The notes under the pieces were generated by a model. The model worked only from the letters and a program-made list of their open reading frames with translations. It made no database searches and had not been told where the DNA came from. A DNA stretch of 64,000 bases, from positions 1 through 64,000 of IMG/VR virus record IMGVR_UViG_3300031997_000007; one strand, given 5' to 3'. A program made the translations under genes and the position numbers. Shown here piece after piece: positions 14,301-57,116 of this stretch. How positions within the stretch are numbered: the first letter of the stretch is position 1; each line of letters begins with the position of its first letter. Source of the DNA: a virus.

Positions 14301-14466
14301 ATTCACGATATCGAGTTAATCTAGTTGCACTACCTTGAATTAACCGTTGATACCAAGTATAATTGCTTGAAAATGCATACCCTTGATCGATTTGTTGACT
14401 ATCTTGGATTGTAGCCGCAGCTTGGGTAGGGGAAACAACTTTATAAAAATCTGTTATCTTCGCCAT
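11335..14466 (-). CDS. 20: Portal protein (gp20 family) interrupted by an intein
   Basis: 1043 residues before splicing. Residues 1-309 and 782-1043 form the portal: ITDFYKVVSPTQ start, YDIMDTDVEIARALDIIAEE, YRTHKQKELLEDAIVIYRI, RAPERRVFYIDVG, and after the intein QLEDVFLAQRSDGKGS, VEVLPGGQSLGEMSD and LRVPISWM. All are T4-like portal landmarks; the spliced length is about 571 (T4 gp20 is 524). It forms the dodecameric vertex for DNA packaging. The C-terminus is an unusual Gly/Met/Pro-rich tail (GGMGGGMGGMGG repeats) encoded by 11339-11563. An exact late promoter and a 5' hairpin precede the gene. Confidence 0.92.
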   Translation of the reverse strand: MAKITDFYKVVSPTQAAATIQDSQQIDQGYAFSSNYTWYQRLIQGSATRLTRYREYDIMDTDVEIARALDIIAEEMTSRNTKTDMVLNISMQIDDGQEVEDTIVLTLRSALRHWSILHGFTENRLFKIARNMIKYGDCFFKIHSSYKKWEWIPASNVIGAVVDAQDVTKVLAYQVRMDSKVPNSNSSAYNGTGSMAVGSQAYTTEIIPIEHMAVFSINDDMSETAPFGDSALRTVYRTHKQKELLEDAIVIYRIQRAPERRVFYIDVGKMQPNRVKAYLETIKNEIRQKKIPSNNQNGGNSVDAVYNPQCISLDTRIPLLDGRVLTLFDIINEYQSGKELWGYSVNPETGEQVPGLISWAGITRKNSKVIKITFDNNESLICTADHKIPVQGKGFVNAENLDINDSLFPFNLRLEKLGKYTYTQTYDTNKQDWQFVHRMVNKFFSENQLIETFVYDSKFLNSKKDTIHHRDINRYNNSPSNLMRMNSKDHILFHANELLNPNRIAGIENHRLLLNTDDEYRAQFIKKLSDIGKARWLELNEEEKQQCIQRLVDNKLPTVNQLIIFDEKCLNYCVKILHNNPTISIKQFMLTLNNNVEFMNYYASINQYKKVDGVLFNYKIDVSHITHSGFHKLIKLHGYDNFKTLRNKIIQEKVKLFNNHDSSFNYIKQLIVNITPCCNELLPYIRNNSNILQLFIEWYRTISPKTKLKLPDAVLMNKIGQHYGYDSWNGMLTGITQYNHKIIAIEYLDETMDVGTLTIDQNEVYHNYHTFAIDAGIFIKNSQLEDVFLAQRSDGKGSKVEVLPGGQSLGEMSDLDYFMDKVLRGLRVPISWMKTGVNSAMFNDGKVGAAYVEEQQFAKFVERLQVYIEIELDKAFKTFLFASNINIDNTLFKIKLPSPSNYEHYQQAEVDTTLLNTLSQAESVPYLSKRFILSRYAQLTEDEIITNEQLLKQEKGYDPDADKSLQQIYGAPAEGMGGMGGGMGGMGGGMGGMGLGEPGAEGELGTEGEPGEIGTVGTVGGAAGAAPPGGVTPGGPGAPPPPT
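12124..13539 (-). other. Intein with HNH endonuclease in the portal protein
   Basis: 472 residues (C310 to N781 of the precursor). It begins CISLDTRIPLLDG, the usual first splicing block, has the TxxH block as CTADHKIPV, and ends HTFAIDAGIFIKN followed by Ser as the +1 residue. The first Cys, terminal Asn and +1 Ser are all present, but the penultimate residue is Lys and not the usual His. The centre carries HHRDINRYNNSPSNL and a later DHILFHANE, an HNH-type homing nuclease, not the LAGLIDADG type. The portal sequence reads through cleanly when it is removed. Confidence 0.9.
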
Positions 14467-40572: not shown

Positions 40573-43263
40573 ATGAAATTAAACGGTAATCTAGTATTAA
40601 ACGCTGCTGGCGCGTCTGAAGTTCAGAATTTTATTATTGAAAGAATGTCAGGATTACCTTCGGTATTAACTAGTGAAAAGGGTCGTATTGTTTTTAATTT
40701 AACAGACGCAATCTATTACTATAATACTGGAACAATTTGGCAAGCATTCGCAACAGGTGGTAATGCATCAAATATTCAAACAGAAGTAAATAATATTGAA
40801 CTGTCATTAGGAGATATGACAACTGATAATGGAGTTTTCGTTGGCTCTACATTCACTACCCTAAATAGCACAATTTGGCCGTCAAGCCCAACTAGCTTAA
40901 CAAACGCTTTAGATATATTAGCTGATTATATGTCAGGTAAAGATACCTTAGCTGAATTAGATGATGTTCTACTTACAGATACAGCTGGTGGTCAATATTT
41001 ACGATATGATGTAGGGGATTCTGTATGGGTAAATAGTACATTAGTAATTGCTGATGTAACTGATATTACATCTTCTGCTGCTGAATTAAATATTTTAGAT
41101 GGTGTTACTTCATCTACATCTGAATTAAATATTTTAGATGGTGTTACGGCAACAGCTACTGAAATCAATTTACTAGATGGTGTTGCATCTACATTAACAG
41201 TTACAGAATTAAATTATGTTGATGGAGTTACATCTGGTATTCAAAGTCAATTAGACAATAAACAACCTTTGGATGCTGGTTTAACAGCATTATCTATATT
41301 TGACTCAGTTGGTATTATAGTTGAAACTGCTACTAATGTATGGGCAGCACGCACAACTGTAGCTCCCACTGCTGGTATCACGATTACAAATCCTGCTGGA
41401 ACAGCCGGTAATATTACTTTCGCATTAGCTAATGATTTAGCTGCGGTTGAAGGTTTAGCTACTTTAGGGTTTGCTGTTCGTGTTGAAGATGGTAGTTGGA
41501 TAACCCGTAATGTTGCTACAGCTTCTACTGACCGTATCACTGTAACCAATGGAAGTGGTGTTGATGCTTCTCCAACTATAGATTTAGCAACTGTTACTAA
41601 TGGTGGAACTGGTACATTCTTAAAAATTACCAGAGACTCTTATGGTCGTGTAAGCGGTACTACAGCTGTTGTACAAGGTGATATCACCGGTTTAGTAGCT
41701 AGTGTTTATGTTGATGTATCAGGTGATTCAATGACAGGTAACTTAGCTTTTGGTGGTACTTATAAAGTTACAGGTTTAGCTTCTCCGTTAGATGGTCAAG
41801 ACGCTGCTAACAAAAACTATGTAGATGGTTTAATAACTGGTATTTCTTGGAAAGAACCTGTTGGTAGTGTAGGTGCAACAAACCCTACAACAGTAGCAAT
41901 AGGTTATCGTTTCTTAAATACTACAGATAAAAAGATTTATGTTGCTACAGCTGGTTGGGTTGCTGGTGATCCAGAAGCTGATCCAGTTCTTGATCCTGTT
42001 TTAACTGTTTGGAATGCTGGCACATCTCCATCTGATAACTGGGCAGTATTCGATAAAACTACTGATGGCGCCTATACTTATGATAGTTCTACAACCGCTT
42101 GGATTCAATTCACTGGTGCAGGTCAAATTGTTGATGGTACAGGTTTATCTAAATCAGGTAACACACTTAATGTTAACTTAGGTGCTGGTGTTGTTGCATT
42201 ACCATCGGATGAAGTCGGTCTTGATTTATTCTCTGATTCAGCCTCTGCGTTAATATTAACAGTAAATGGTACAGTTCGTTCAACAGACACTGCTTCAAAA
42301 TTAGCATTATTATTACCTACAGGTAGTGGTTTATATCAAGACGCAACTGGATTGTATGTTCCAGCAAATGGCATCACAAATGGTATGATCTTAAATGAAA
42401 CAATCACATTAGATGCTGACGATATCGGAACAACTGCAATTGCGTTAGGCGGTACTTTACTTATAGCTGGTACATCTACACAAGGTATTAGTACTGCTAT
42501 ATCTACAGGTACTGTAACTATAACAGCATCTGATGCATCTTATACCCAAAAAGGTGTTGCAAGCTTCAATACACTTGACTTTACCGTAACTGCTGGTGCT
42601 GTTAGTATTGCTTCATTGTCAAACGCACAATTAGACAACTCAAGTATTACTGTTACAGGTACAACTGGTTCTGATGCTGTTAGCTTAGGTGAGTCATTCG
42701 CTATCGTTGGTGGTACAACTCCAATTACAACTGTATCTGCTGCAAATAGTGTTACAATCAATGTTGCAGATGCTGGTGCAGCCGCTAAAGGTCTTGCAAG
42801 TTTTAACTCAAGTCACTTCAGTGTAACAACCGGTGCTGTTAGTTTAGACGCTACAATAGATGATCTATCAAATGTATCAAGTGCTGATGGTGCTGCTACT
42901 GACTCAATCTTAACTAAATCAGCTACTGATTGGGTTCCTGTAACTCGCGCTAACTTATTAGGTACAGAATCAATTGATGCATTGTCTGATGTTGTTATTA
43001 CTACTCCTGCATCTGGTCAAGTATTACAAAATAACGGTACAAACTGGGTTAATAAAAAAGTATATCACGTTGAGGCTATGTCTTCAAGTACAACTTGGAC
43101 TGTTACTCACGGAATAGGTCAAAAATTTGTAATAGTAAATGTATATGATAGTACTGACAATATTGTAATTCCACAATCAATCGTTGCAACAAGTACAACA
43201 GTAACCACAATTACGTTTAATACCGCTCTAGCCGGTACGGTCGCAATTTCTGGCGTTGCATAA
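40573..43263 (+). CDS. Long tail fibre protein
   Basis: 896 residues after a GGAG ribosome site. The N-terminus has the KGRIVFNLTDAIYYYNTGTIWQ module shared with the next gene. Residues about 165-220 hold tandem ELNILDGVT repeats, a hallmark of phage fibres (four copies: two ELNILDGVT, then EINLLDGVA and ELNYVDGVT). The rest is Thr/Ala/Gly/Val-rich beta structure with repeated ASFNxxxFxVTxGAVS units near residues 660-760. The C-terminal 65 residues are the shared WTVTHGIG module. Codon use looks less AT-rich than in the neighbours, which suggests module exchange. A terminator follows. Confidence 0.85.
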   Translation: MKLNGNLVLNAAGASEVQNFIIERMSGLPSVLTSEKGRIVFNLTDAIYYYNTGTIWQAFATGGNASNIQTEVNNIELSLGDMTTDNGVFVGSTFTTLNSTIWPSSPTSLTNALDILADYMSGKDTLAELDDVLLTDTAGGQYLRYDVGDSVWVNSTLVIADVTDITSSAAELNILDGVTSSTSELNILDGVTATATEINLLDGVASTLTVTELNYVDGVTSGIQSQLDNKQPLDAGLTALSIFDSVGIIVETATNVWAARTTVAPTAGITITNPAGTAGNITFALANDLAAVEGLATLGFAVRVEDGSWITRNVATASTDRITVTNGSGVDASPTIDLATVTNGGTGTFLKITRDSYGRVSGTTAVVQGDITGLVASVYVDVSGDSMTGNLAFGGTYKVTGLASPLDGQDAANKNYVDGLITGISWKEPVGSVGATNPTTVAIGYRFLNTTDKKIYVATAGWVAGDPEADPVLDPVLTVWNAGTSPSDNWAVFDKTTDGAYTYDSSTTAWIQFTGAGQIVDGTGLSKSGNTLNVNLGAGVVALPSDEVGLDLFSDSASALILTVNGTVRSTDTASKLALLLPTGSGLYQDATGLYVPANGITNGMILNETITLDADDIGTTAIALGGTLLIAGTSTQGISTAISTGTVTITASDASYTQKGVASFNTLDFTVTAGAVSIASLSNAQLDNSSITVTGTTGSDAVSLGESFAIVGGTTPITTVSAANSVTINVADAGAAAKGLASFNSSHFSVTTGAVSLDATIDDLSNVSSADGAATDSILTKSATDWVPVTRANLLGTESIDALSDVVITTPASGQVLQNNGTNWVNKKVYHVEAMSSSTTWTVTHGIGQKFVIVNVYDSTDNIVIPQSIVATSTTVTTITFNTALAGTVAISGVA
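41072..41225 (+). repeat. Tandem ELNILDGVT-coding repeats in the fibre gene
   Basis: Four imperfect copies of a unit of about 39-45 bases encode ELNILDGVT, ELNILDGVT, EINLLDGVA and ELNYVDGVT. The first two are nearly identical in DNA. Confidence 0.85.
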
Positions 43264-44649: not shown

Positions 44650-45768
44650 ATGTTTGAAAATACAATACCAATACCAGTACAAGTTCATGGATATGTACAT
44701 ATAGAAGACGATTTAGGTAATGTTTATTTAGATAAGAGCAACGCTATTCATCCAGCTAATATGGGTCGTGTTTTTGCAAGAGCTCTAGCTAATGAAAGCA
44801 ATTATTGGATTAACCGTATAGCTTTTGGCAATGGTGGGACTGTTGTAGATGCGGCATATAATATAACATATAAAACACCTAATGATGGATTACCTCCTGA
44901 TGCTGCTGGATGGAAATCGTGTCTTTATAATGAAACATATTCTGAATATATCAATGAAAGTAGCATATTAATAAGCTCTGGAGTAGGAGCTGTACCTTCA
45001 AGTGATCCACTAGCTATATTAAATAATATGTCAGGCCCGGGAGTAGTAAGTGTTGATCAGGGATTAATATCACAAGTTGTTATAACATGTGTTTTAAATC
45101 CAAATGAACCGTTGAGTCAATATCCAACTGATATTGTTGGAAATGCTCTTAATAATGTAACTGAATATACCGAAACACCTTTTACGTTTGATGAAATTGG
45201 ATTATTTACAGCGGGTACTACAGTTATTGCAACTCCCGGTACACAAAGTGTTAATGTAAGTATAAAAACAGCAACTGACCCGACTGGATTACTTCCAGAT
45301 ACCACATACATATTTGATATTAATGTTAGTGGAACTATACAACATATTACTATTCATACACCATTAACAGGATCTGGTGTTGGCGGACAAATTCTATATA
45401 GTGATTTAATTATATTATTAAATGTTACAATAGCTGATGCTACTGTTTCTATTAATGATGGGACTAATATGACATACGGATATTTAAAGTTTACTAATGA
45501 CGATGTTGGAGTTAATGCTAATATTACTTTAATAACCCCTGCTAGTCCTCCTGATAATTGGTTATTCGATGGATTAAATAGCTTTATAGGATTTCTTGCA
45601 CCTGTCAATGGAACAGATGGTGGTGTTGATAACGACTTAAATAATCCTACACATGAAGCCCAACGCATGTTAACTCATCTAATTTTTAGCCCGGTACTTA
45701 AAGCTGCAAATAGAACATTTATTATTAAATACACATTAACAATATCAGTTGCACGCTCTGAACAATAA
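44650..45768 (+). CDS. Structural protein with conserved DKxNAIHPxNM start
   Basis: 372 residues. The N-terminus VHGYVHIEDDLGNVYLDKSNAIHPANMGRVFARALA and the WINRIAFGNGG block occur in tail-associated proteins of T4-like and related large phages (cited here in parts of residues 13-65). The rest is Thr/Asn/Gly-rich beta sequence ending FIIKYTLTISVARSEQ. It probably belongs to the tail or baseplate; the exact role is unknown. Confidence 0.65.
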   Translation: MFENTIPIPVQVHGYVHIEDDLGNVYLDKSNAIHPANMGRVFARALANESNYWINRIAFGNGGTVVDAAYNITYKTPNDGLPPDAAGWKSCLYNETYSEYINESSILISSGVGAVPSSDPLAILNNMSGPGVVSVDQGLISQVVITCVLNPNEPLSQYPTDIVGNALNNVTEYTETPFTFDEIGLFTAGTTVIATPGTQSVNVSIKTATDPTGLLPDTTYIFDINVSGTIQHITIHTPLTGSGVGGQILYSDLIILLNVTIADATVSINDGTNMTYGYLKFTNDDVGVNANITLITPASPPDNWLFDGLNSFIGFLAPVNGTDGGVDNDLNNPTHEAQRMLTHLIFSPVLKAANRTFIIKYTLTISVARSEQ

Positions 45769-45805
45769 CATCTTATATTTTAATGATAAGTAGGTATTTA
45801 AATAT

Positions 45806-46015
45806 ATGAAGGGACCAGGACAGTCGAATAGTTTTTCAAGACGTGCTAAAGCAATGGATGGTAATAGCATACCAAATCAGTATGTTAATAAGAATTATGG
45901 TGTTAAACGTAAAGCGAAAGCCCATAAATATAGCATTATTAGTACAGGAACTGGTAAATATTATGGCTCAAAAGCTATAATGGAAACTTTTAAAGAATTT
46001 CTTATACGCACATAA
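45806..46015 (+). CDS. Small basic protein, unknown
   Basis: 69 residues with many Lys and Arg (SRRAKAMDG, VKRKAKAHK) and no recognised domain. It starts 37 bases after the previous gene without a clear ribosome site. Its strong charge could suit nucleic-acid binding, but nothing proves it. Confidence 0.5.
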   Translation: MKGPGQSNSFSRRAKAMDGNSIPNQYVNKNYGVKRKAKAHKYSIISTGTGKYYGSKAIMETFKEFLIRT

Positions 46016-46046
46016 TAAATATTTTCGCATAAATAAAAAAGAATAG

Positions 46047-46074
46047 TTGCATTAAAGAATAAATATTATATAAT
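46047..46074 (+). promoter_or_regulatory. Strong sigma70-type promoter of the micro-ORF array
   Basis: TTGCAT (46047-46052), 16-base spacer, perfect TATAAT (46069-46074), 25 bases before the first micro-ORF. A CATAAATA late-promoter variant also lies at 46028-46035, so the array could be read early and late. Confidence 0.7.
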
Positions 46075-46099
46075 AGAACTATAGTTCAAGGAGATGACA

Positions 46100-46162
46100 A
46101 TGAAACGAGATATAATATGGATTGCACCAGTTTTTAAAGGTCCAGGAGTTTACTGGGGTTGA
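46100..46162 (+). CDS. Micro-ORF 1 (20 aa, Trp/Pro/Gly)
   Basis: Preceded by a full AAGGAG ribosome site with good spacing, the only strong one in the array. The peptide starts MKRDIIWIAPVF and ends GPGVYWG: two Trp, two Pro. The stop TGA overlaps the TTG start of the next ORF. Confidence 0.55.
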   Translation: MKRDIIWIAPVFKGPGVYWG

Positions 46163-46206
46163 TTGATAATTGGCCAACTACTGGATTTATTGATCCAGAT
46201 TGGTGA
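46159..46206 (+). CDS. Micro-ORF 2 (15 aa, TTG start)
   Basis: TTG start overlapping the previous TGA (TTGA), so expression would depend on coupling. The peptide reads MIDNWPTTGFIDPDW: WP near the start and PDW at the end. It is the weakest of the seven because of its start codon. Confidence 0.35.
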   Translation: MIDNWPTTGFIDPDW

Positions 46207-46210
46207 TAAT

Positions 46211-46279
46211 ATGAAAGATATAATGCCTTTATTACCTTATACCGTTGTTAAACCTGGTTGGGCTCCAACTGATGTATAA
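46211..46279 (+). CDS. Micro-ORF 3 (22 aa)
   Basis: ATG four bases after the previous stop, in the recurring junction ATAATATGAAAG. It starts MKDIMPLLPY and ends KPGWAPTDV. It has four Pro and one Trp. Confidence 0.5.
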   Translation: MKDIMPLLPYTVVKPGWAPTDV

Positions 46280-46294
46280 GTGGCCTGTTGTAAT

Positions 46295-46402
46295 ATGAAA
46301 GACTTAAGACCTATTCATTGGCCAGAACTCATTTTATGGATACTACCATGTGGTATCACATGTATTATACCAGGTTTTGGTATAATTGTTCCCGCGATGT
46401 GA
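46295..46402 (+). CDS. Micro-ORF 4 (35 aa, hydrophobic)
   Basis: ATG in the same AATATGAAAG junction; an in-frame GTG at 46280, directly after the previous stop, is an alternative start. It begins MKDLRPIHWPE, matching the MKD start of micro-ORF 3, and continues into a hydrophobic stretch with two Cys and several Pro (LILWILPCGITC) that could sit in a membrane. Confidence 0.5.
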   Translation: MKDLRPIHWPELILWILPCGITCIIPGFGIIVPAM

Positions 46403-46407
46403 ATAAT

Positions 46408-46545
46408 ATGAAACAAAAAGTTATTCTGCAAAAAGCGAAAAGAATTGGTACTATAAAATGGCCAGATGATGTTCCTTGGGATATTATACTTCCATGGATT
46501 GCAGGTCCTAGACCAGCTCCATGGATTACATTCCCAGGACCATAA
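46408..46545 (+). CDS. Micro-ORF 5 (45 aa)
   Basis: ATG in the same ATAATATGAAA junction, five bases after the previous stop. The N-terminal third is basic (KQKVILQKAKR), followed by KWPDDVPWDIILPW and a GPRPAPWITFPGP end: four Trp and nine Pro, with PW repeated. It is the longest member. Confidence 0.55.
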   Translation: MKQKVILQKAKRIGTIKWPDDVPWDIILPWIAGPRPAPWITFPGP

Positions 46546-46546
46546 A

Positions 46547-46585
46547 ATGAATAAAAATAAACAGTGGCCTATTTGGCCTAAATAA
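46547..46585 (+). CDS. Micro-ORF 6 (12 aa)
   Basis: ATG one base after the previous stop. The peptide MNKNKQWPIWPK holds two WP pairs in seven residues, continuing the array's motif. It is too short to judge alone. Confidence 0.4.
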   Translation: MNKNKQWPIWPK

Positions 46586-46629
46586 CATATAATATAAACA
46601 AGTTAAACAAATTTAAAAAGAGACAAGAA

Positions 46630-46692
46630 ATGAAAACTATCGTAATGCCCATGATTATTGTGAAACATCCGGATGCGCCCATTATTGTGTAG
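46630..46692 (+). CDS. Micro-ORF 7 (20 aa)
   Basis: ATG after a GAGACAAGAA stretch, 44 bases beyond micro-ORF 6. It starts MKTIVMPMII and ends HPDAPIIV. It has Pro but no Trp. Its stop codon lies inside the 5' arm of a long hairpin. Confidence 0.4.
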   Translation: MKTIVMPMIIVKHPDAPIIV

Positions 46693-46728
46693 ATAGTATA
46701 TCGTTTTTTAAATCTACCAATAATGGGC
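46677..46728 (+). other. 17-bp hairpin overlapping the end of micro-ORF 7
   Basis: GCCCATTATTG (46677-46687) pairs with 46718-46728, and GTAGAT (46689-46694) with ATCTAC (46712-46717), with one bulged T and a 17-base loop holding a T run. It shares base 46728 with the next terminator stem, so the two structures compete only at the join. Confidence 0.7.
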
Positions 46729-46759
46729 CTGAAAGTTTCAAACTTATCAGGTTTTTTTT
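46728..46759 (+). terminator. Intrinsic terminator of the micro-ORF array
   Basis: Stem CCTGA-AAGTTT paired with AAACTT-A-TCAGG (46728-46738 with 46740-46751), followed by eight T's. Confidence 0.85.
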
Positions 46760-46842
46760 ATGGTTGTTAAAACACAGAAATAAAATGTAAAAGAACACAG
46801 TAATTAAATGTAAGAAAACAAGTGAATAAAAGTGATTATCGG

Positions 46843-46916
46843 GGAGAATGTAGCTTAATTGGTAAAGCCCTCGCCTGTGAAGTGAGTAGTTGGGAGATCG
46901 TAGCTCCTCATTCTCC
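46843..46916 (+). tRNA. tRNA-His (GTG)
   Basis: Acceptor GAGAATG/CATTCTC, D arm GCTT/AAGC, anticodon loop CTGTGAA with anticodon GTG, and a G-1 opposite discriminator C73, the identity element of tRNA-His. The T loop is ATCGTAG in place of TTCxAxx, which is unusual. The 3' end overlaps the end of the HNH gene by nine bases. Confidence 0.85.
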
Positions 46917-47813
46917 CCGATATACATTTTCATATTCATCTACCATGAAAACTAAGCTTTCATAAGTGATTGAGGATTTTGTTTTTTTAATATTATTATT
47001 TGTTTGTGACATTATTTCACAATTTAAAGGATGTGAAATATAATAAGGATCATAATTATGTTTAACTGCATCTTTTACTGATATTTTATGATCTCGACTA
47101 AGCCCTGTAGGATTAAGTGTTTTATTTCCAAACTTACCACCATTGGAAAACCAACCTACTGATTTAATTAAATTTAAATCAAATATATTAGGATAGTCAT
47201 ATACATTAAATTTAAATCTATATATTTGACGCATACCATCAAAATATAGTGATGCACAGTTATAGCAATATTTTTGTTTATTTTTGATTAAAGTTACATT
47301 AGAACAATGAGTACAACAACATTTATATAATTTACTATATGGAATATTGTTTTTATCAGCTTCTGTAATTGCAATTTTTATTGATATTTTAATAAATTGA
47401 GTATTCGTAATAATACGTTCTTTACGTTCTTTACTTTTATGAGTATTTGAAATTTTAGTTTTTGTCGCAGTTGTTAGAATACGACCAGTATTAGTATATG
47501 ATGCTGAACACGAATTATTACAAAAGTTATTTCTTCGTGATTTATATGGTATTATTGTAGAGCAGTATTTGCATATTTTAGGATTTAAGTTGTATGTTTG
47601 TTTAACTAATATTGCTTTTGTACGAACATAATTCGTACAATCTCGCTTTTTACAATTTTCTTTATTTTTAATTGTAACATCATCAGTTTGTATAGGATGA
47701 TTAGGATATTGATTTCGAAAATTAACATATGAAATATTATGTAGTTTTAAATGATTATTGGTTATTTTCTTAAATTGTTTAAAACAAATAGGACAAGTAA
47801 TATATGAGTTCAT
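46908..47813 (-). CDS. Zinc-finger HNH endonuclease in the tRNA cluster
   Basis: 301 residues. It starts with a C2H2-like finger (CPICFKQFKKITNNHLKLH), then a CKYC...FCNNSC pair and a CCTHC...CYNC pair. The C-terminal nuclease reads LSRDHKISVKDAV, then HPLNCEIMSQTNNNIKK, the DH...N...H/N order of HNH enzymes. It lies opposite to the tRNAs, overlapping tRNA-His at one end, with a tRNA 3' remnant at the other. A GATAAATA octamer lies upstream (47844-47851, minus). It looks like a mobile homing gene that entered a tRNA. Confidence 0.75.
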   Translation of the reverse strand: MNSYITCPICFKQFKKITNNHLKLHNISYVNFRNQYPNHPIQTDDVTIKNKENCKKRDCTNYVRTKAILVKQTYNLNPKICKYCSTIIPYKSRRNNFCNNSCSASYTNTGRILTTATKTKISNTHKSKERKERIITNTQFIKISIKIAITEADKNNIPYSKLYKCCCTHCSNVTLIKNKQKYCYNCASLYFDGMRQIYRFKFNVYDYPNIFDLNLIKSVGWFSNGGKFGNKTLNPTGLSRDHKISVKDAVKHNYDPYYISHPLNCEIMSQTNNNIKKTKSSITYESLVFMVDEYENVYRGE

Positions 47814-47862
47814 AATTATAATATTAAAATAAGTTTAAATATATATTTATCAATATTATTGA

Positions 47863-47890
47863 AGGGGTTCGAATCTCTCCAGTCACCCCT
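47863..47890 (+). pseudogene. 3' remnant of a tRNA gene
   Basis: AGGGG-TTCGAAT-CTCTC has the shape of a T arm, followed by CAGTCAC, an acceptor 3' strand. No D arm, anticodon arm or matching 5' acceptor strand is found upstream; the HNH gene begins 50 bases away. Insertion of that gene probably destroyed the tRNA. Confidence 0.6.
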
Positions 47891-47920
47891 ATAATTATTT
47901 TCAACTAAAGAGTATGTAAA

Positions 47921-48109
47921 ATGAATGTACAAGAAGTGATTGATAAATTAATGTTAGTTAAAGATAAATCAAAACACTTACAAGTTACCATTACTCGATG
48001 TGGGCGAAGTTGGTGTTCAACTAATGATATAGATGATATTATTGAAGAAGATACAGTAGTTGAAGCTACTGGTGGTGAAACAGATCAAGGTGGATTGAGA
48101 TATTTTTAA
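47921..48109 (+). CDS. Small conserved phage protein (62 aa)
   Basis: MNVQEVIDKLMLVKDKSKHLQVTI followed by CGRSWCSTNDIDDIIEEDTVVEA. The plan 'VxEVIxKL...v.v....IddI' is common among small phage proteins of unknown role. It lies between the tRNA remnant and tRNA-Met and has no strong ribosome site. Confidence 0.65.
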   Translation: MNVQEVIDKLMLVKDKSKHLQVTITRCGRSWCSTNDIDDIIEEDTVVEATGGETDQGGLRYF

Positions 48110-48123
48110 ATAGTATTTTTTGT

Positions 48124-48196
48124 AGTGATGTGGCTAAGCCGGTAAAGCACCTCCTTCATACGGAGAAAATCGTTGGTTCGAACCCAACCATCACTA
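48124..48196 (+). tRNA. tRNA-Met or tRNA-Ile2 (CAT)
   Basis: Acceptor AGTGATG/CATCACT, D arm GCT/AGC, anticodon loop TTCATAC (anticodon CAT), T arm GTTGG-TTCGAAC-CCAAC. The first pair A-T excludes initiator type. Elongator Met and lysidine-modified Ile2 cannot be separated from sequence alone. Confidence 0.85.
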
Positions 48197-48219
48197 CAAA
48201 ATGTATTTAAACGAAATAC

Positions 48220-48293
48220 AGCTCTATAGTTCAAAGGTAGAACATTACGCTGATAACGTAAAGACACAAGATCGATACCTGGTAGAGCTACCA
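48220..48293 (+). tRNA. tRNA-Ile (GAT) with encoded CCA
   Basis: Acceptor AGCTCTA/TAGAGCT, D arm GTTC/GAAC, anticodon stem TTACG/CGTAA with loop CTGATAA (GAT). CCA follows the discriminator A in the DNA. The T stem has mismatches and the T loop reads ATCGATA, so it may be a decaying or unusual tRNA. Confidence 0.8.
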
Positions 48294-48314
48294 ATTTTAA
48301 AAAGTATACTTAGT

Positions 48315-48388
48315 AGGTACGTCGTTCAGCGGCCTAGAACACCACCCTTTTAAGGTGGGAATCGTGGGTTCAAATCCCACCGTACCTA
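48315..48388 (+). tRNA. tRNA-Lys (TTT)
   Basis: Acceptor AGGTACG/CGTACCT, D arm GTTC/GAAC, anticodon stem CCACC/GGTGG, loop CTTTTAA (TTT), T arm GTGGG-TTCAAAT-CCCAC. All four stems pair fully. Confidence 0.95.
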
Positions 48389-48423
48389 CTAAGTGTATTT
48401 TAGAAGAGTAAAGTCAACGTTGT

Positions 48424-48496
48424 AGGAGTATAACTCAATTGGTAGAGTGTCGCATTTACATTGCGGAAGTTATCGGTTCAATTCCGGTTACTCCTA
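48424..48496 (+). tRNA. tRNA-Val (TAC)
   Basis: Acceptor AGGAGTA/TACTCCT, D arm ACTC/GAGT, loop TTTACAT (TAC), T arm ATCGG-TTCAATT-CCGGT. Confidence 0.93.
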
Positions 48497-48529
48497 CAAT
48501 GTTGATTTAAAACAAATAGTAGGTATTGT

Positions 48530-48601
48530 CAGTCTGTAGCCAAGCGGTATGGCGCCAAATTTGGGGTTTGGAAATCGGGAGTTCGAGCCTCTCCAGACTG
48601 A
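48530..48601 (+). tRNA. tRNA-Pro (TGG)
   Basis: Acceptor CAGTCTG/CAGACTG, D arm GCCA/TGGC, anticodon stem CCAAA/TTTGG, loop TTTGGGG (TGG), T arm GGGAG-TTCGAGC-CTCTC. Confidence 0.93.
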
Positions 48602-48673
48602 CAATACCTATTAAATCAATGAGTTAACATATAAGATAATAAGGAACTAGCAATAACCTATAAAATTGAAAAC

Positions 48674-48817
48674 ATGGAGGTTTTTTCTGTTTTTTCTATG
48701 AACGGCTTTAATGAAGCATGGGAACGAATTACTACTTTATGTGAGATGGCTGCTTTATTAAATAAACCAAAAGAAAAAATTGAAATACCAGCACCTGTAA
48801 ATCCATTAAAATTTTAG
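48674..48817 (+). CDS. Small hypothetical protein (47 aa)
   Basis: Open frame from ATG 48674 to TAG 48815-48817. It begins MEVFSVFSMNGFNEAWER, then ITTLCEMAALLNKPKEKIE, with a Pro-rich end. An internal ATG at 48698 would give 39 residues. No ribosome site lies close to either start. The amphipathic helix pattern suggests a real peptide, but no family is known. Confidence 0.4.
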   Translation: MEVFSVFSMNGFNEAWERITTLCEMAALLNKPKEKIEIPAPVNPLKF

Positions 48818-48830
48818 TTAATTATAATTG

Positions 48831-48859
48831 TTGATTAATTCTACAAAATATTATATAAT
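48831..48859 (+). promoter_or_regulatory. Sigma70-type promoter before 48890
   Basis: TTGATT (48831-48836), 17-base spacer, perfect TATAAT (48854-48859), 31 bases before the ATG. Confidence 0.65.
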
Positions 48860-48889
48860 ATGATTTTATTAATAATTTAGAGGACAACA

Positions 48890-49231
48890 ATGACTATTCA
48901 TGTAAAAAATATTAAAATTTTAAAAGGATATTTTGATAAAGTTGTGGAAAGAACACAGTGTCATGCAGGGAATGTTGGTCAAGTAATTTTTCCCTTATTA
49001 GGATTTATTGTTAATAAAATGGATGAAAATTCTGATATTCAAGTTAGAGGAAATGATGCAACTGGTAACATTCTTTGGATCTTTATAGGTGGTACTAGAT
49101 ATGCGTTTCGTTATGAGCATAGCGATGAAACTATTGAAATTAGAGAAAATAGCTATATGGGACCACTTATTGCAAAAGTTGATAATAGTACCACAACTTC
49201 AAAACTTGAAACTATATTTGCAAATTTGTAA
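48890..49231 (+). CDS. Small protein resembling integron-cassette family Hfx_Cass5
   Basis: 113 residues after a GAGG ribosome site. The blocks HAGNVGQVIFPLLGFIV, then GNILWIFIGGTRYAFRYEHSDETIEIRENS, GPLIAKVDNSTT and LETIFANL resemble, from memory, the Hfx_Cass5 group of integron gene-cassette proteins (HaxxVxevl...NvLWf...ryalxYdhxxxxIEvRexsxxGxvl). That group has no known function. The own host-type promoter suggests early expression. Confidence 0.55.
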   Translation: MTIHVKNIKILKGYFDKVVERTQCHAGNVGQVIFPLLGFIVNKMDENSDIQVRGNDATGNILWIFIGGTRYAFRYEHSDETIEIRENSYMGPLIAKVDNSTTTSKLETIFANL

Positions 49232-49437
49232 TATATAAAAATATTATATAATTAAATTTTATATAAGTGAATAATATATTTTAATATATCATATTCAACT
49301 AAATTCATACACAGATGCATTGTTCTTTATTATCTTACGTCCAGTTATACATGCACTTAGTATAACGCAGCAACACGGTTATCTTCAAAATTACGTATTA
49401 TTTACTAAATAATATTACAATAATAAGGAGTAAGATA

Positions 49438-50007
49438 ATGCAAACGTATCATTATGCACAAGCCAGAGAATTAATTAAAGATGGGGATATTATTTTCTTC
49501 AAAAATAAACCAAATATATCTTCAAAACTAATTGAAGCCATAACTGATTCACCGTTTTCTCATGTGGCTATAGCTTTTTGGGTTGAAGTGGCTTGTAAAA
49601 ATATACATAAAACAAAACGATTAATGATCGTTGAAGCTACTGGTCATACTAATAATAGAGATATTGTAAACTTATCAAATGAATGTATTTATGATATGAT
49701 AGTATTATCTCCACCACTGAAATGGATTGATATTAGTGAAAATGCACTTGATAGAGTTGGACTAGTACCTTACGGATGGACCGATGGTGCATTAATTGGA
49801 ATTCAATCTTTAATATATAGAGGATTTGGTAAAAAAATAAATATTGGTGGTGGGCGAGGTGAATATTGTTCAGAATTTGTTGCTAAAGCTTACAAATTAC
49901 CAAACACAGAAATAACCCCACACGAATTATATGATACTTTGATATCACAATATAAATGCGAGGTTAGATTTGAAATTGTACCACTATCTACCGATATAAT
50001 TGTTTGA
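49438..50007 (+). CDS. Permuted NlpC/P60-like (YiiX-type) amidase
   Basis: 189 residues after AAGGAG. The circularly permuted papain-like plan is clear: DGDIIFFKNKP at residues 15-25, the catalytic His in FSHVAIAFW (near 42), and the catalytic Cys in GEYCSEFVAKAYKLP (near 143). Such enzymes cleave amide bonds in peptidoglycan or lipids. It has no signal peptide. It could act in lysis or on host envelope, and it lies near a holin candidate. The 206-base gap before it shows no clear feature beyond AT-rich sequence. Confidence 0.8.
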   Translation: MQTYHYAQARELIKDGDIIFFKNKPNISSKLIEAITDSPFSHVAIAFWVEVACKNIHKTKRLMIVEATGHTNNRDIVNLSNECIYDMIVLSPPLKWIDISENALDRVGLVPYGWTDGALIGIQSLIYRGFGKKINIGGGRGEYCSEFVAKAYKLPNTEITPHELYDTLISQYKCEVRFEIVPLSTDIIV

Positions 50008-50439
50008 TTATTTAATAGCTACCGGTTTTGTTGTTTTTGCAAGTGATTCAAAAGATTGACTTGTAGTTGGTGTTTGAATTTGTTGTTGCATTGGTGCACC
50101 TTTTTGTCCACCACCAAATGGTAGCATTTGTCCGCTAGCGGTACGTAATTTTGCTAATTGATTAAAATACAATAAAGCATTCATTCCATTCCCTAAAGTA
50201 TGTTGTTCTAACATAGACCAAAGTTCTGTATATAACGCTGCGCTTTTGTGTAATAATATATTGCGCAGACGTTGTTTATCGATATTATCAAGTGATGATA
50301 GTGCGAAAAAATAAGTATCTCCATTTGGAAACTTCTTTAAAATAGCGCATTCAATCATCACACCGTTGTTTTCTAAATCCATCCATTCAAGGAATCTGTA
50401 ATTACCTGGTGTTGATTGGTTTTGTGTATTTGGCTCCAT
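50008..50439 (-). CDS. Conserved T4-like phage protein
   Basis: 143 residues from ATG 50439, chosen because TAGGAGG lies directly upstream; a longer frame reaches 50481. The middle FLEWMDLENNGVMIECAILKKFPNGDTYFFALSSLDNIDKQRLRNIL (cited from residues 19-65) and TLGNGMNALLYFNQLAK recur in T4-like cyanophage-type genomes as an unnamed protein. The C-terminus is Gln/Pro/Gly-rich and probably disordered. It converges with the amidase gene end to end. Confidence 0.65.
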   Translation of the reverse strand: MEPNTQNQSTPGNYRFLEWMDLENNGVMIECAILKKFPNGDTYFFALSSLDNIDKQRLRNILLHKSAALYTELWSMLEQHTLGNGMNALLYFNQLAKLRTASGQMLPFGGGQKGAPMQQQIQTPTTSQSFESLAKTTKPVAIK

Positions 50440-50510
50440 ATATCCTCCTAAAGAATAATTATTGTTATATAAGCTCACCACTATTTATTACATAAAAAAC
50501 AAGGGTATCT

Positions 50511-53307: not shown

Positions 53308-56300
53308 CTAAAATGTAAATAATTCTTTTACGTGAAATAGTTGAGCTGTTGGTACTTCTTCGTTAATAGCGTTAAGTATATGTTCTAACGGTTTATCAAC
53401 TAAACGATACAGTTGTGCATCCCTATCGAGTATAGGTAAAAAGTATTCATAAAACCAAGATGGTACAGTATCAATATCTGTTGGTAATGCAATTGATTTA
53501 AACTTTCCAAATTTTGATTTAAGATAAAATACTTTTAACTTAGTTCCTGAAGTTATTACTGGAGATTCATGATCTTCATGTTCTTTAAGCTGAATATTAT
53601 AATATATAGCTGCAGCAACGTGACCGGGTAGTCTACAAGTACGATCGCGCTCATAAGACACTGTATAATTCTCAACATTATTAACTCCTTTTGGTAACCC
53701 TATAGATAAAATATCTTGGGTGTTTATTAATTCTTTTTTATATGCAACCACTTCTGCTGCAATAGAATCCCAAGTTGCCCCTTTCAATAAACGTTCAATA
53801 AATTTTGTTAATGTTTGTTGAACTGGCTTTGGCAATGTGGTTTTCTTTAATTCTAATCCCATTATTTTTAACTTATCAACAGCATGACCTTCACTATCGA
53901 TAATATGTAACATGTATCGTTTTTTATCAACAAATATACCACGATCACTAACAATTTCTCTTGCAGTTTTTATCTTTTGATCATATCCCGGTTGACATAA
54001 AAACGCTTCTCTCATAAATGCTGGGAAAGATTTGTTTACAACCTCCGCTACCGCATCCGCAGTTTTTATTGCTTCTTCAGAGTTTTGTGTATACGTTTTA
54101 TAATAACATGAATCTGTATTATGTACTAAAATATTATTAGCAAAAAATGTATGAGTGTCTTCAACTTCAATATCATAAACGTAATCATCATATTCAAGTT
54201 TTTCAATTTTTGTAATACGACATAAACTAATACCATAATCAAGAACCATTTTAGTTGCATTACCACGTTTTTTAATAATACAGTTTTGTTTTCTTGTTAA
54301 TATAAATCCAATCTTTTCTCTAAATCCATAACCATCTTTAATGTTTAAATGATAACTATATGTTCCTGTACTTATATTTTTATATAAATTAGGTGTTGTT
54401 TCTTGAAAATAATTTGACGGTATACCACAATAAAATAATAATTGCTGTACACCAATAATATTTTCATATGTAATAGAACATAATGATACTTTACCTTTAA
54501 TTGAAGTAGATCCATCTGCACTAAAATACCCACTTAAAAAATACCCAATATGCTCTTCTGTCTCTTGAAATATAAATTTTGGAATTCTTTTTATACCTGT
54601 TTCATATAATGTAGATCTAAGTAAATAATATAATTTAGACCCACATATTCTAACATCATGAGTATTAGATTGTTCTTTAAATGAAGTAATCCATTTTTGT
54701 TTAATTAATGGTAATAATAATTTTTCAATAACTTCTTCTTTATCTTGATTTCCTATACTTAATCCTATATTACCTTGAACTGTTTTTGCAACATAACCAT
54801 CACCTAATACATACCCCATTATTTGATATATTTCTTTTGTATAATTTAAATCATTAATATTAATTCTTGGAATTCGCTTTAGAAATATTAAACTATTAGC
54901 AATTATACCGATTTCTTCAGGCTTAACGTTAATTAATCTTGTTTCTCCTGGTTTCCATACATTAGTGTTTCTATAACCAATTAATGAGTGGTCTTCAGTT
55001 ACATCAATAAAATTTGTATTTGATATACATACTCTATACATTTGTTTAGCTGTTTTATGTCTCATTACATACTTTACAGATTTATAACATGAATCTTGTA
55101 ATACTTCATCATATGTTAGTACTTGTAAATTACTAGGATGATAATATTCTTTATTGTTAATAATTATTTCAGTTTCATTAAACAAATTACATATATTACA
55201 TAATCCTATGTTTGTATATATTTTAGAATCATGTGCCACAGAGTCTCCGTATACTATTGATTCTGAAGGAAATTCTCCTTTAAACACTGGCCCGTGTAGT
55301 GCTAAATCAGGAGAACATCCATGCTCAATACACTCTTTAACTGTTTCATATAATGGAAAATTTGTATTATATGGACCACCTAATAATTCTGATACTTTAC
55401 GGCATTGATGTCGTAAAATCATTCTACCAGTTCCAGTTACAGATTCACCTGCTTCTAATTTAAAAAATCTAAAATTATAATTGGTGAGTGCTCCATATGT
55501 ACTATTTAACCGTATCTTTGTAACAAATTGTAATCGATCATAATAATTTGATTTTTCAATTAATCCATCATATTGTGTAGGATTCGCACTTGCTTCATCA
55601 TGATATTGTAATTTTAATTTTTGAAATTCCTTTCGTTCAACATACCAATTACTTAATATTGTTGGAATAATACCCGGGTTAGTTTGATCATACACTGTTC
55701 CATATCCACTAACTGCCCATTTTTTATTCAACATATAACCAACCCATTCAGAGGTTGTTTTACTTATAGTACTACCATCTGCTAGAAATAATGTTAATTC
55801 TTCTTCTCTACGTGCATATAATGTTTCCCAATCATTAATATTATTCTCAAATTGTCCAATATATGTTTCTGGGCTAATATTTATCGCAATAATGGCTGAT
55901 GGATACAGTGATGAAATATCTATTGATCCAATATGTTCATGCATACCTTGTTGTGGTAATAATACATATGCACCTTGAATACTACCATCTGCGGTATCCC
56001 ACCTATCTGGAACTTTAACATTTAAATCATTATGACAATAATTAATAATAGCATAATCAACTAACTTAACTGTACCATGAATGTGAGTAAATAACCCACA
56101 TGATGAATGACACATTTCATTTGCAAGTGCCATATATCCTAATTTATCTTCAAAACCTTTCAATATTTCAGTATCACGAACATTATATCGAATAAAATGA
56201 TTAAAATCATTATGATACAAAGACGCTAATGTTCCTGTATACGATAATTTAGGTAAATGTGGTAAAAATTCATCTGCAATTGCCTCCAATTTATAACTTG

Positions 56301-57096
56301 GACGTTCTTTAAATTCATATTTTTTAAATATTTCTAAATAATCGACAGATACTCTACCATATATATCTACAAAACATTGAGTTCGATTTCGTACAAGTGT
56401 TTCACGAAATCTAGGTATAGGTGCATCCGGAAAGGACATCCGTTTTAACGCTCGTGGGCCTAATATTTGATTAATTCGTTTACAAATATATGGGTCATCG
56501 AACCCGTTTGAATTCCAACCCGTGATTAACGTAGTGTCTTCAATAAGATCTAAAAACCGTAATAGTAATGATCGTTCATTTTTAAAAAATTCCACTTTCG
56601 ATAAATCACGTAATGATTCATCAAAATCATTCATATCAAAACCCGGCGGGGGTACTGCAAGTACATATGATTCTCCCAACCAGTAATGATGTAATGATAT
56701 TGCATTTACAGGTGCGTATGGATTTAATGGTGATGAAAATCCGATTAATGGATTATAATCAACCTCAATATCATACATAGTTATATTAAGTTTTGGTGCA
56801 GGTTGTTTATAATATAATTTAGATAATACCTTAAATTCAATATCTATATCTGATTCATACAACTTAATTCGTTTTTCATCAATTAAGAATTTTTTTGCTT
56901 CTTCAAACTCATAATAAGAATCAAATGAATACTTTTTTAGTTTTTCATTAAAAACACTAACATATTCACCGTCTTTATCTGCTATATAAAATTCATAAAT
57001 ACCTGGATATCGTTTACATGTTGTAACGTGATTTTCACTATGCCATACAAGTACTTTATTTGTTTTTCTATCTAATTTAGCTGATATATAACTCAT
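53308..57096 (-). CDS. 43: Family B DNA polymerase (gp43) interrupted by an intein
   Basis: 1262 residues from ATG 57096 (AAGGA upstream; a GTG lies one codon earlier). Exonuclease motifs: MYDIEVDY (Asp109, Glu111), ITGWNSNGFDDPYI, and YNVRDTEIL. Polymerase motifs: DISSLYPSAIIAINISPE (A), KIRLNSTYGALTN (B) and YGD-TDS (C), split by the intein. Without the intein it has 887 residues, close to T4 gp43 (898). It ends with AQLFHVKELFTF, a likely clamp-binding tail. It is the replicative polymerase with proofreading. Confidence 0.95.
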   Translation of the reverse strand: MSYISAKLDRKTNKVLVWHSENHVTTCKRYPGIYEFYIADKDGEYVSVFNEKLKKYSFDSYYEFEEAKKFLIDEKRIKLYESDIDIEFKVLSKLYYKQPAPKLNITMYDIEVDYNPLIGFSSPLNPYAPVNAISLHHYWLGESYVLAVPPPGFDMNDFDESLRDLSKVEFFKNERSLLLRFLDLIEDTTLITGWNSNGFDDPYICKRINQILGPRALKRMSFPDAPIPRFRETLVRNRTQCFVDIYGRVSVDYLEIFKKYEFKERPSYKLEAIADEFLPHLPKLSYTGTLASLYHNDFNHFIRYNVRDTEILKGFEDKLGYMALANEMCHSSCGLFTHIHGTVKLVDYAIINYCHNDLNVKVPDRWDTADGSIQGAYVLLPQQGMHEHIGSIDISSLYPSAIIAINISPETYIGQFENNINDWETLYARREEELTLFLADGSTISKTTSEWVGYMLNKKWAVSGYGTVYDQTNPGIIPTILSNWYVERKEFQKLKLQYHDEASANPTQYDGLIEKSNYYDRLQFVTKIRLNSTYGALTNYNFRFFKLEAGESVTGTGRMILRHQCRKVSELLGGPYNTNFPLYETVKECIEHGCSPDLALHGPVFKGEFPSESIVYGDSVAHDSKIYTNIGLCNICNLFNETEIIINNKEYYHPSNLQVLTYDEVLQDSCYKSVKYVMRHKTAKQMYRVCISNTNFIDVTEDHSLIGYRNTNVWKPGETRLINVKPEEIGIIANSLIFLKRIPRININDLNYTKEIYQIMGYVLGDGYVAKTVQGNIGLSIGNQDKEEVIEKLLLPLIKQKWITSFKEQSNTHDVRICGSKLYYLLRSTLYETGIKRIPKFIFQETEEHIGYFLSGYFSADGSTSIKGKVSLCSITYENIIGVQQLLFYCGIPSNYFQETTPNLYKNISTGTYSYHLNIKDGYGFREKIGFILTRKQNCIIKKRGNATKMVLDYGISLCRITKIEKLEYDDYVYDIEVEDTHTFFANNILVHNTDSCYYKTYTQNSEEAIKTADAVAEVVNKSFPAFMREAFLCQPGYDQKIKTAREIVSDRGIFVDKKRYMLHIIDSEGHAVDKLKIMGLELKKTTLPKPVQQTLTKFIERLLKGATWDSIAAEVVAYKKELINTQDILSIGLPKGVNNVENYTVSYERDRTCRLPGHVAAAIYYNIQLKEHEDHESPVITSGTKLKVFYLKSKFGKFKSIALPTDIDTVPSWFYEYFLPILDRDAQLYRLVDKPLEHILNAINEEVPTAQLFHVKELFTF
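54118..55242 (-). other. Intein with LAGLIDADG endonuclease in DNA polymerase
   Basis: 375 residues (S619 to N993 of the precursor), inserted in polymerase motif C exactly between YGD and TDS, a site used by several archaeal and viral polymerase inteins. It starts SVAHDSKIYTN with Ser at position 1, carries a TEDHSL block, has two LAGLIDADG-like motifs (IMGYVLGDGYV near 763, LSGYFSADGS near 855) and ends DTHTFFANNILVHN followed by Thr. All splicing residues are intact. Confidence 0.95.
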
Positions 57097-57116
57097 CACA
57101 ATCCTTGTTATAAATG

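What the first reader, a model, noticed from the sequence alone, without database searches (positions are those of the whole stretch)
46047..46759. Array of seven Trp/Pro-rich micro-ORFs in one transcription unit
Between a strong promoter (TTGCAT-16-TATAAT) and a textbook terminator lie seven ORFs of 12 to 45 codons, packed stop-to-start. Only the first has a strong ribosome site. Micro-ORFs 3 to 5 start in the same junction (AATATGAAA), as if copied. Six of seven are rich in Pro, and five carry WP, PW, GW or IW motifs (for example QWPIWP and PAPWITFPGP). No decayed larger gene explains them, because each starts anew. They could be host-takeover peptides, small membrane peptides or peptide precursors. 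I know of no described family like this.
Basis: partly seen in the sequence, partly recalled or inferred. Interest (0 to 1): 0.85.

Follow-up and report, generated by a model that had tools for sequence, protein, structure and literature searches.

The report
Coupled Trp/Pro-rich micro-genes in jumbo phage
A giant bacterial virus carries, in one short stretch of DNA, a run of seven or eight tiny overlapping genes for peptides unusually rich in tryptophan and proline; the sequence statistics show they are very probably real protein-coding genes, but no relative was found and what the peptides do is unknown.

Summary
The first seven are joined by stop-start junctions of -4, +4, -8, -4, +5 and +1 nt; the eighth stands 44 nt off. 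In-frame Trp+Pro codons number 41 of 51 TGG/CC sites, against 11.8 +- 3.6 (maximum 21) in 500 shuffles. The frames carry the phage's codon signature even after Trp and Pro codons are removed (0.95 against 0.05 +- 0.14 bits per codon). No Ser occurs in 169 codons. The RNA folding is explained by the coding (synonymous shuffle z -0.18). So this is very probably a translated micro-peptide operon, not an RNA element and probably not a decayed gene. It sits in a 4.2-kb island, with six tRNA genes, between two convergent genes that lie about 45-85 bp apart in many relatives of this XacN1-like jumbo phage. No similar array was found in the collections searched. Best mechanism: termination-reinitiation from one strong ribosome site makes a set of small peptides for host takeover. 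Coding is well supported; reinitiation and function are inferred.

The parts
45769..50007 (.). accessory island between the convergent genes 44650-45768 (+) and 50008-50481 (-)
   Evidence: the two flanking genes lie about 45-85 bp apart in many relatives with both genes; the island's other genes, apart from the amidase 49438-50007, have no match in the related loci then held
46047..46074 (+). promoter-like element TTGCAT-16-TATAAT; the -10 lies in AAATATTATATAAT (46061-46074)
   Evidence: 14-mer exact at 46061, 48846 and 49239 only, all + strand in the island; the -35 is weak
46088..46093 (+). Shine-Dalgarno AAGGAG, 6 nt before the first ATG
46100..46162 (+). micro-ORF 1: MKRDIIWIAPVFKGPGVYWG
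   Evidence: own-frame codon score +0.49 versus -0.48 and -0.84
46159..46206 (+). micro-ORF 2 (TTG start, TTGA overlap with ORF1): (M)IDNWPTTGFIDPDW
   Evidence: +0.57 versus -0.53 and -0.77
46211..46279 (+). micro-ORF 3: MKDIMPLLPYTVVKPGWAPTDV
   Evidence: +0.54 versus -0.86 and -0.61
46295..46402 (+). micro-ORF 5: MKDLRPIHWPELILWILPCGITCIIPGFGIIVPAM, membrane-like stretch
   Evidence: highest 19-residue hydropathy of the set, 2.15
46408..46545 (+). micro-ORF 6: MKQKVILQKAKRIGTIKWPDDVPWDIILPWIAGPRPAPWITFPGP, with an in-frame 27-nt internal repeat at 46491 and 46518
   Evidence: +0.46 versus -0.81 and -0.63; repeat
46547..46585 (+). micro-ORF 7: MNKNKQWPIWPK
46579..46597 (+). second promoter-like element TAAATAACATATAATATAA before ORF8
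   Evidence: exact match to TAAATANNATATAATANAA, shared only with 46060
46630..46692 (+). micro-ORF 8 (least certain): MKTIVMPMIIVKHPDAPIIV; its end lies in a 17-bp hairpin and it stands 44 nt from ORF7
   Evidence: weak codon score -0.14, still best of three frames; hairpin
46677..46759 (+). 17-bp hairpin followed by a bulged terminator-like hairpin and T8
   Evidence: folds (z -3.3 for 46660-46765)

Best explanation
The stretch is a real operon of seven (possibly eight) translated micro-genes carried as accessory cargo by an XacN1-like jumbo myophage. One mRNA starts at an AT-rich sigma70-like promoter of the island. Ribosomes load at the single strong site before ORF1 and pass from ORF to ORF by termination-reinitiation over overlaps or gaps of 8 nt or less, giving a co-produced set of small Trp/Pro/Ile-rich peptides. 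Five of them (2, 4, 5, 6, 7) share one short core, [K/Q/H/N]-Trp-Pro. The most likely role is a set of related host-takeover peptides acting at the membrane surface or on a host protein by way of the Trp-Pro core. Shown: the ORFs, their coding signature, the junctions, and that the searches run found no relative. Inferred: transcription start, actual reinitiation, timing and function. The confidence is for the whole statement; for translation of ORF1-7 alone I would say about 0.85.
For: In-frame Trp+Pro excess; own-frame codon score best in 8 of 8 ORFs, and the mean advantage unchanged when Trp/Pro codons are left out; Ser absent from 169 codons; junctions -4, +4, -8, -4, +5, +1 nt, the range in which reinitiation works, since gaps of about 20 nt nearly abolish it (PMC10666635); one good Shine-Dalgarno, at ORF1; [KQHN]WP 5 times versus 0.29 expected from the same residues; in-frame 27-nt repeat in ORF6 and similar starts of ORF3 and ORF5; RNA folding no stronger than in synonymous shuffles; island-specific promoter-like 14-mer, while TATAAATA is enriched upstream of genes, 11 of 20 copies in 5% of the sequence.
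Against: No relative with the array was found, so there is no conservation or dN/dS evidence. Host takeover is inferred only from small size, island location and a promoter unlike the late one. The peptides are not uniformly hydrophobic or cationic. ORF8 fits poorly. Some statistics ([KQHN]WP, tRNA match) were chosen after seeing the data.
Confidence: 0.5

Rival explanations
1. The micro-ORFs act in cis: they are leader peptides whose translation (stalling at Trp/Pro codons) controls the paired hairpins, the terminator at 46677-46757 and read-through into the tRNA genes behind it.
For: Trp- and Pro-rich short ORFs precede a two-hairpin structure; a tRNA cluster follows; ORF8 ends inside the first hairpin; the array is rich in the residues served by the six island tRNAs (53% versus 28%; 0.45% of six-residue subsets do as well, post hoc).
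Against: One leader would suffice, and seven different peptides with phage-like codon usage are not needed for attenuation; Trp codons are scattered, not clustered before the hairpin; no Trp tRNA in the island; no structure in the array beyond that implied by coding.
Confidence: 0.15
2. Remnant of one larger Pro/Trp-rich gene broken by indels and stop codons.
For: A decayed gene would also show coding signature in several frames; ORFs 1, 3, 5 and 7 share one frame.
Against: Every change of coding frame coincides with a stop-start pair; each piece starts with its own ATG (one TTG); three starts share AATATGAAA; composition (no Ser, 16% Pro) is unlike the phage's genes; no intact homologue found.
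Confidence: 0.12
3. Structured RNA whose UGG/CCA stems look like Trp and Pro codons by accident.
For: MFE z -3.4 against dinucleotide shuffles.
Against: The excess vanishes against synonymous-codon shuffles (z -0.18); CC and TGG lie in frame; the codon signature persists without them; no Rfam match apart from tRNA.
Confidence: 0.03
4. Precursors of modified or secreted peptides (bacteriocin-like), comparable in composition to indolicidin or tritrpticin.
For: Trp/Pro-rich short peptides such as QWPIWPK resemble Trp/Pro-rich antimicrobial peptides in composition.
Against: No maturation enzyme or exporter seen among the genes scanned; several peptides are neutral or acidic. Only part of the phage genome is held.
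Confidence: 0.1

Closest known systems
Phage small proteins acting on the host (for example lambda Kil; reviewed in PMC11323111)
   Same: very short phage-encoded peptides outside the virion modules
   Different: those known are single genes with a defined target; here seven or eight coupled micro-ORFs share a Trp/Pro bias and no homologue was found
Translationally coupled gene pairs with ATGA overlaps (PMC6728339, PMC10666635)
   Same: -4 overlaps and very short gaps, single strong initiation site
   Different: a run of six close junctions with ORFs of 8-45 codons rather than pairs of full-size genes
Trp/Pro-rich antimicrobial peptides (indolicidin, tritrpticin)
   Same: short, rich in Trp and Pro
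   Different: animal, secreted, cationic (from general knowledge); no sequence relationship tested or claimed; charges here run from -3 to +4
Trp operon leader peptides and attenuators (from memory, not compared)
   Same: short Trp-containing ORF before a terminator
   Different: many ORFs, Pro more frequent than Trp, no clustered Trp codons, no Trp gene seen downstream

Membership tests
Translationally coupled operon (termination-reinitiation) | stop-start overlap or gap well under 20 nt | tested here: met
   -4, +4, -8, -4, +5, +1 nt for ORF1-7; ORF7 to ORF8 is +44 and fails
Translationally coupled operon (termination-reinitiation) | downstream translation depends on upstream translation | not testable with these tools
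   needs reporter assays
Protein-coding genes | codon signature of the genome in the claimed frames only | tested here: met
   0.99 versus null 0.02 +- 0.13 bits per codon; 0.95 without Trp/Pro codons
Protein-coding genes | frames conserved under purifying selection in relatives | tested here: inconclusive
   no relative carrying the array was found; records very near the window may be left out of the collections
Known phage or bacterial small-protein family | match to a family model | tested here: not met
   no match in Pfam, PHROGs or NCBIfam at E up to 10 for the five peptides of 20 residues or more; ORF6 none in PDB chains. Peptides under 20 residues cannot be scanned
Attenuator leader peptide | run of regulatory codons just before alternative hairpins | tested here: not met
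   Trp codons spread over 46118-46574; hairpins 46677-46757 start about 100 nt after the last Trp codon
RiPP precursor | neighbouring modification or export genes | tested here: not met
   no such family among the genes scanned in the 72-kb record; the rest of the genome and some small genes were not seen
Structured non-coding RNA | folding beyond that of synonymous sequences | tested here: not met
   z -0.18, 22 of 60 shuffles at least as stable

The most novel reading that the evidence does not exclude
A new kind of viral multi-peptide gene: a reinitiation-coupled string of micro-genes that makes, in set ratio from one ribosome entry, a diversified set of Trp-Pro-core peptides acting together on one host target, possibly served by the tRNA genes carried in the same island.
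Probability: 0.22. Interest if true: 0.85.

Novelty: new variant of a known kind. Interest (0 to 1): 0.6.

Why it matters
Gene finders usually ignore ORFs under about 30 codons, so strings of genes of 8-45 codons are normally not annotated at all. If translated, this array would show that phages can encode whole sets of related micro-peptides in 600 bp, and it gives a statistical way (in-frame rare-residue and codon-signature test against shuffles) to find others without homologues. Each peptide is short enough to synthesise and test directly.

Tried and rejected
Near and distant DNA matches of the array or island in named phages: none to the array, only the HNH-like gene in GAP32. tblastn of ORF5 and ORF6 in phages: chance-level matches only. 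Concatenated peptides in viral contigs and in 84,980 prokaryote genomes: none (exact 8-residue seeds, so only close relatives could be found). Pattern QWPIWP in viral contigs: 69 stretches, read as chance matches. Scan of related loci (2.9 Mb) for Trp/Pro clusters: only the window and its own copy stand out. The longest ATG micro-ORF chain among them was also the window's, but longer chains without the bias exist in other loci, so chain length alone proves nothing. Alternative code: rejected, because large genes read through under table 11 and TGA is among their stops. RNA element: rejected.

Full report
WHAT THE WINDOW IS. The window is the first 64,000 bases of a 71,957-base virus record. 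It encodes a T4-type major capsid protein Gp23, a portal and a DNA polymerase, and its nearest named relatives are Xanthomonas phage XacN1 and Stenotrophomonas phages CM1/RAS14 (37-46% protein identity). It is therefore most likely a fragment of an AT-rich XacN1-like jumbo myophage. Relatives in viral contigs reach about 54-58% protein identity at the best-conserved genes near the array.

THE OBSERVATION. On the + strand from 46100 to 46692 there are eight micro-ORFs: MKRDIIWIAPVFKGPGVYWG; (TTG)IDNWPTTGFIDPDW; MKDIMPLLPYTVVKPGWAPTDV; MYKWPVVI; MKDLRPIHWPELILWILPCGITCIIPGFGIIVPAM; MKQKVILQKAKRIGTIKWPDDVPWDIILPWIAGPRPAPWITFPGP; MNKNKQWPIWPK; MKTIVMPMIIVKHPDAPIIV. Distances between stop and next start are -4 (TTGA), +4, -8, -4 (ATGA), +5, +1 and +44 nt. 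Only ORF1 has a full Shine-Dalgarno (AAGGAG, 6 nt before ATG 46100); ORF2, ORF3 and ORF7 have partial ones.

IS IT CODING? Four tests agree. First, of 51 TGG or CC sites, 41 fall in frame as Trp or Pro codons in the best chain; the same generous procedure on 500 dinucleotide shuffles gives 11.8 +- 3.6, maximum 21. Second, each ORF scores best in its own frame with the codon usage of 14 large genes of this phage. Third, the mean own-minus-other-frame score is 0.99 bits per codon against 0.02 +- 0.13 in shuffles, and 0.95 against 0.05 +- 0.14 when all Trp and Pro codons are left out; a blind choice of the best-covering chain gives 0.82 and 0.79. The coding signal is thus independent of the feature that drew attention. 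Fourth, composition is far from the phage's own: Trp 14/169 (P 1e-7), Pro 27/169 (P 1e-9), Ser 0/169 (P 7e-6). Close packing alone is only mildly unusual (P about 0.015), and longer micro-ORF chains without this composition exist in other loci.

NOT AN RNA ELEMENT. The region folds better than dinucleotide shuffles (z -3.4), but UGG and CCA are complementary, so Trp/Pro-rich coding tends to fold. When synonymous codons are exchanged among the ORFs the excess vanishes (z -0.18, 22 of 60 as stable). Only the 3' end (46677-46757, a 17-bp hairpin then a terminator-like hairpin with T8) has structure of its own (z -3.3); ORF8 ends inside it and is the least certain ORF.

NOT EASILY A DECAYED GENE. 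Coding frame changes coincide with stop-start pairs, each piece has its own start, ORFs 3, 5 and 6 share AATATGAAA, the starts of ORF3 and ORF5 are alike over 22 nt (82%), and ORF6 holds an in-frame 27-nt repeat. Five ORFs carry one [K/Q/H/N]-Trp-Pro each; shuffling the same residues gives 0.29 (motif chosen after seeing the data).

WHERE IT SITS. The genes at 44650-45768 (+) and 50008-50481 (-) are convergent and lie about 45-85 bp apart in many relatives that have both; in others the gap holds an amidase or larger genes. In the window it is a 4.2-kb island with a 69-aa gene, the array, tRNA-His, an HNH-like gene, five more tRNAs, a VCH_CASS14-like gene and an amidase. Apart from the amidase the island's genes have no match in the related loci then held. 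The exact 14-mer AAATATTATATAAT occurs three times in the window, all in this island and on this strand: starting 39 nt before ORF1, 44 nt before 48890, and at 49239. Other genes instead often have TATAAATA, the T4 late core, upstream: 11 of 20 copies lie in upstream regions making up 5% of the sequence. I infer that the array is not a late gene set.

RELATIVES. No array was found in the related loci, in viral contigs by peptide or DNA pattern, in named phages, in bacterial genomes or in family libraries.

MECHANISM. Short overlaps support coupling; experiments in E. coli and Haloferax show reinitiation is nearly lost at about 20 nt (PMC10666635). All six junctions of ORF1-7 are within 8 nt; ORF8 at 44 nt is probably not coupled and has its own promoter-like element. 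I propose that one mRNA yields seven peptides by reinitiation. The peptides are short and Trp/Pro/Ile-rich, one with a membrane-like stretch (ORF5), others cationic (ORF6 +4, ORF7 +3) or acidic (ORF2 -3). This suits a set of interfacial or protein-binding host-takeover peptides, but no direct evidence ties them to a target. A post-hoc lead: His, Met, Ile, Lys, Val and Pro, the residues of the six island tRNAs, make 53% of the array against 28% in large genes and at most 35% in any gene examined. XacN1 likewise carries many tRNAs (PMC5852040, abstract).

VERDICT. The sequence fact is confirmed and the coding claim is strong for ORF1-7. Function is open. I rate it a new variant of a known kind (phage small-protein operon), with a 22% chance that it is a distinct multi-peptide system.

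Noticed in passing
46908-47813 (-) with tRNA-His 46844-46918; L357:7725-8580: The HNH/zinc-finger-like gene (no significant Pfam match; HNH is my reading of the sequence) is homologous to GAP32_407; in both phages its 3' end overlaps, antisense, the end of a tRNA gene (His here, Met in GAP32), suggesting a mobile gene that homes to tRNA genes.
   Followed up: partly
47862-47890: GGGGTTCGAATCTCTCCAGTCACCCC looks like the 3' half of a lost tRNA gene next to the HNH-like gene; Rfam does not report it.
   Followed up: partly
53308-57099 (-), about residues 620-990: The DNA polymerase has an insert of about 370 residues that looks like an intein; L010 has a protein of similar length while relatives of about 880 aa (L007) lack it.
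   Followed up: partly
46061, 48846, 49239: Exact 14-mer AAATATTATATAAT three times on the + strand, only in the island: a candidate island-specific promoter.
   Followed up: yes
upstream of genes, e.g. before 11335-14466 (-), 40573-43263 (+) and 2817-4184 (-): TATAAATA, the T4 late promoter core, is about 11-fold enriched upstream of genes.
   Followed up: partly
46844-48602: Six tRNA genes (His, Met, Ile, Lys, Val, Pro) whose residues are over-represented in the micro-peptides (53% versus 28%).
   Followed up: partly
46771-46816: Tandem 23-nt repeat AACACAGAAATAAAATGTAAAAG between the terminator and tRNA-His.
   Followed up: no
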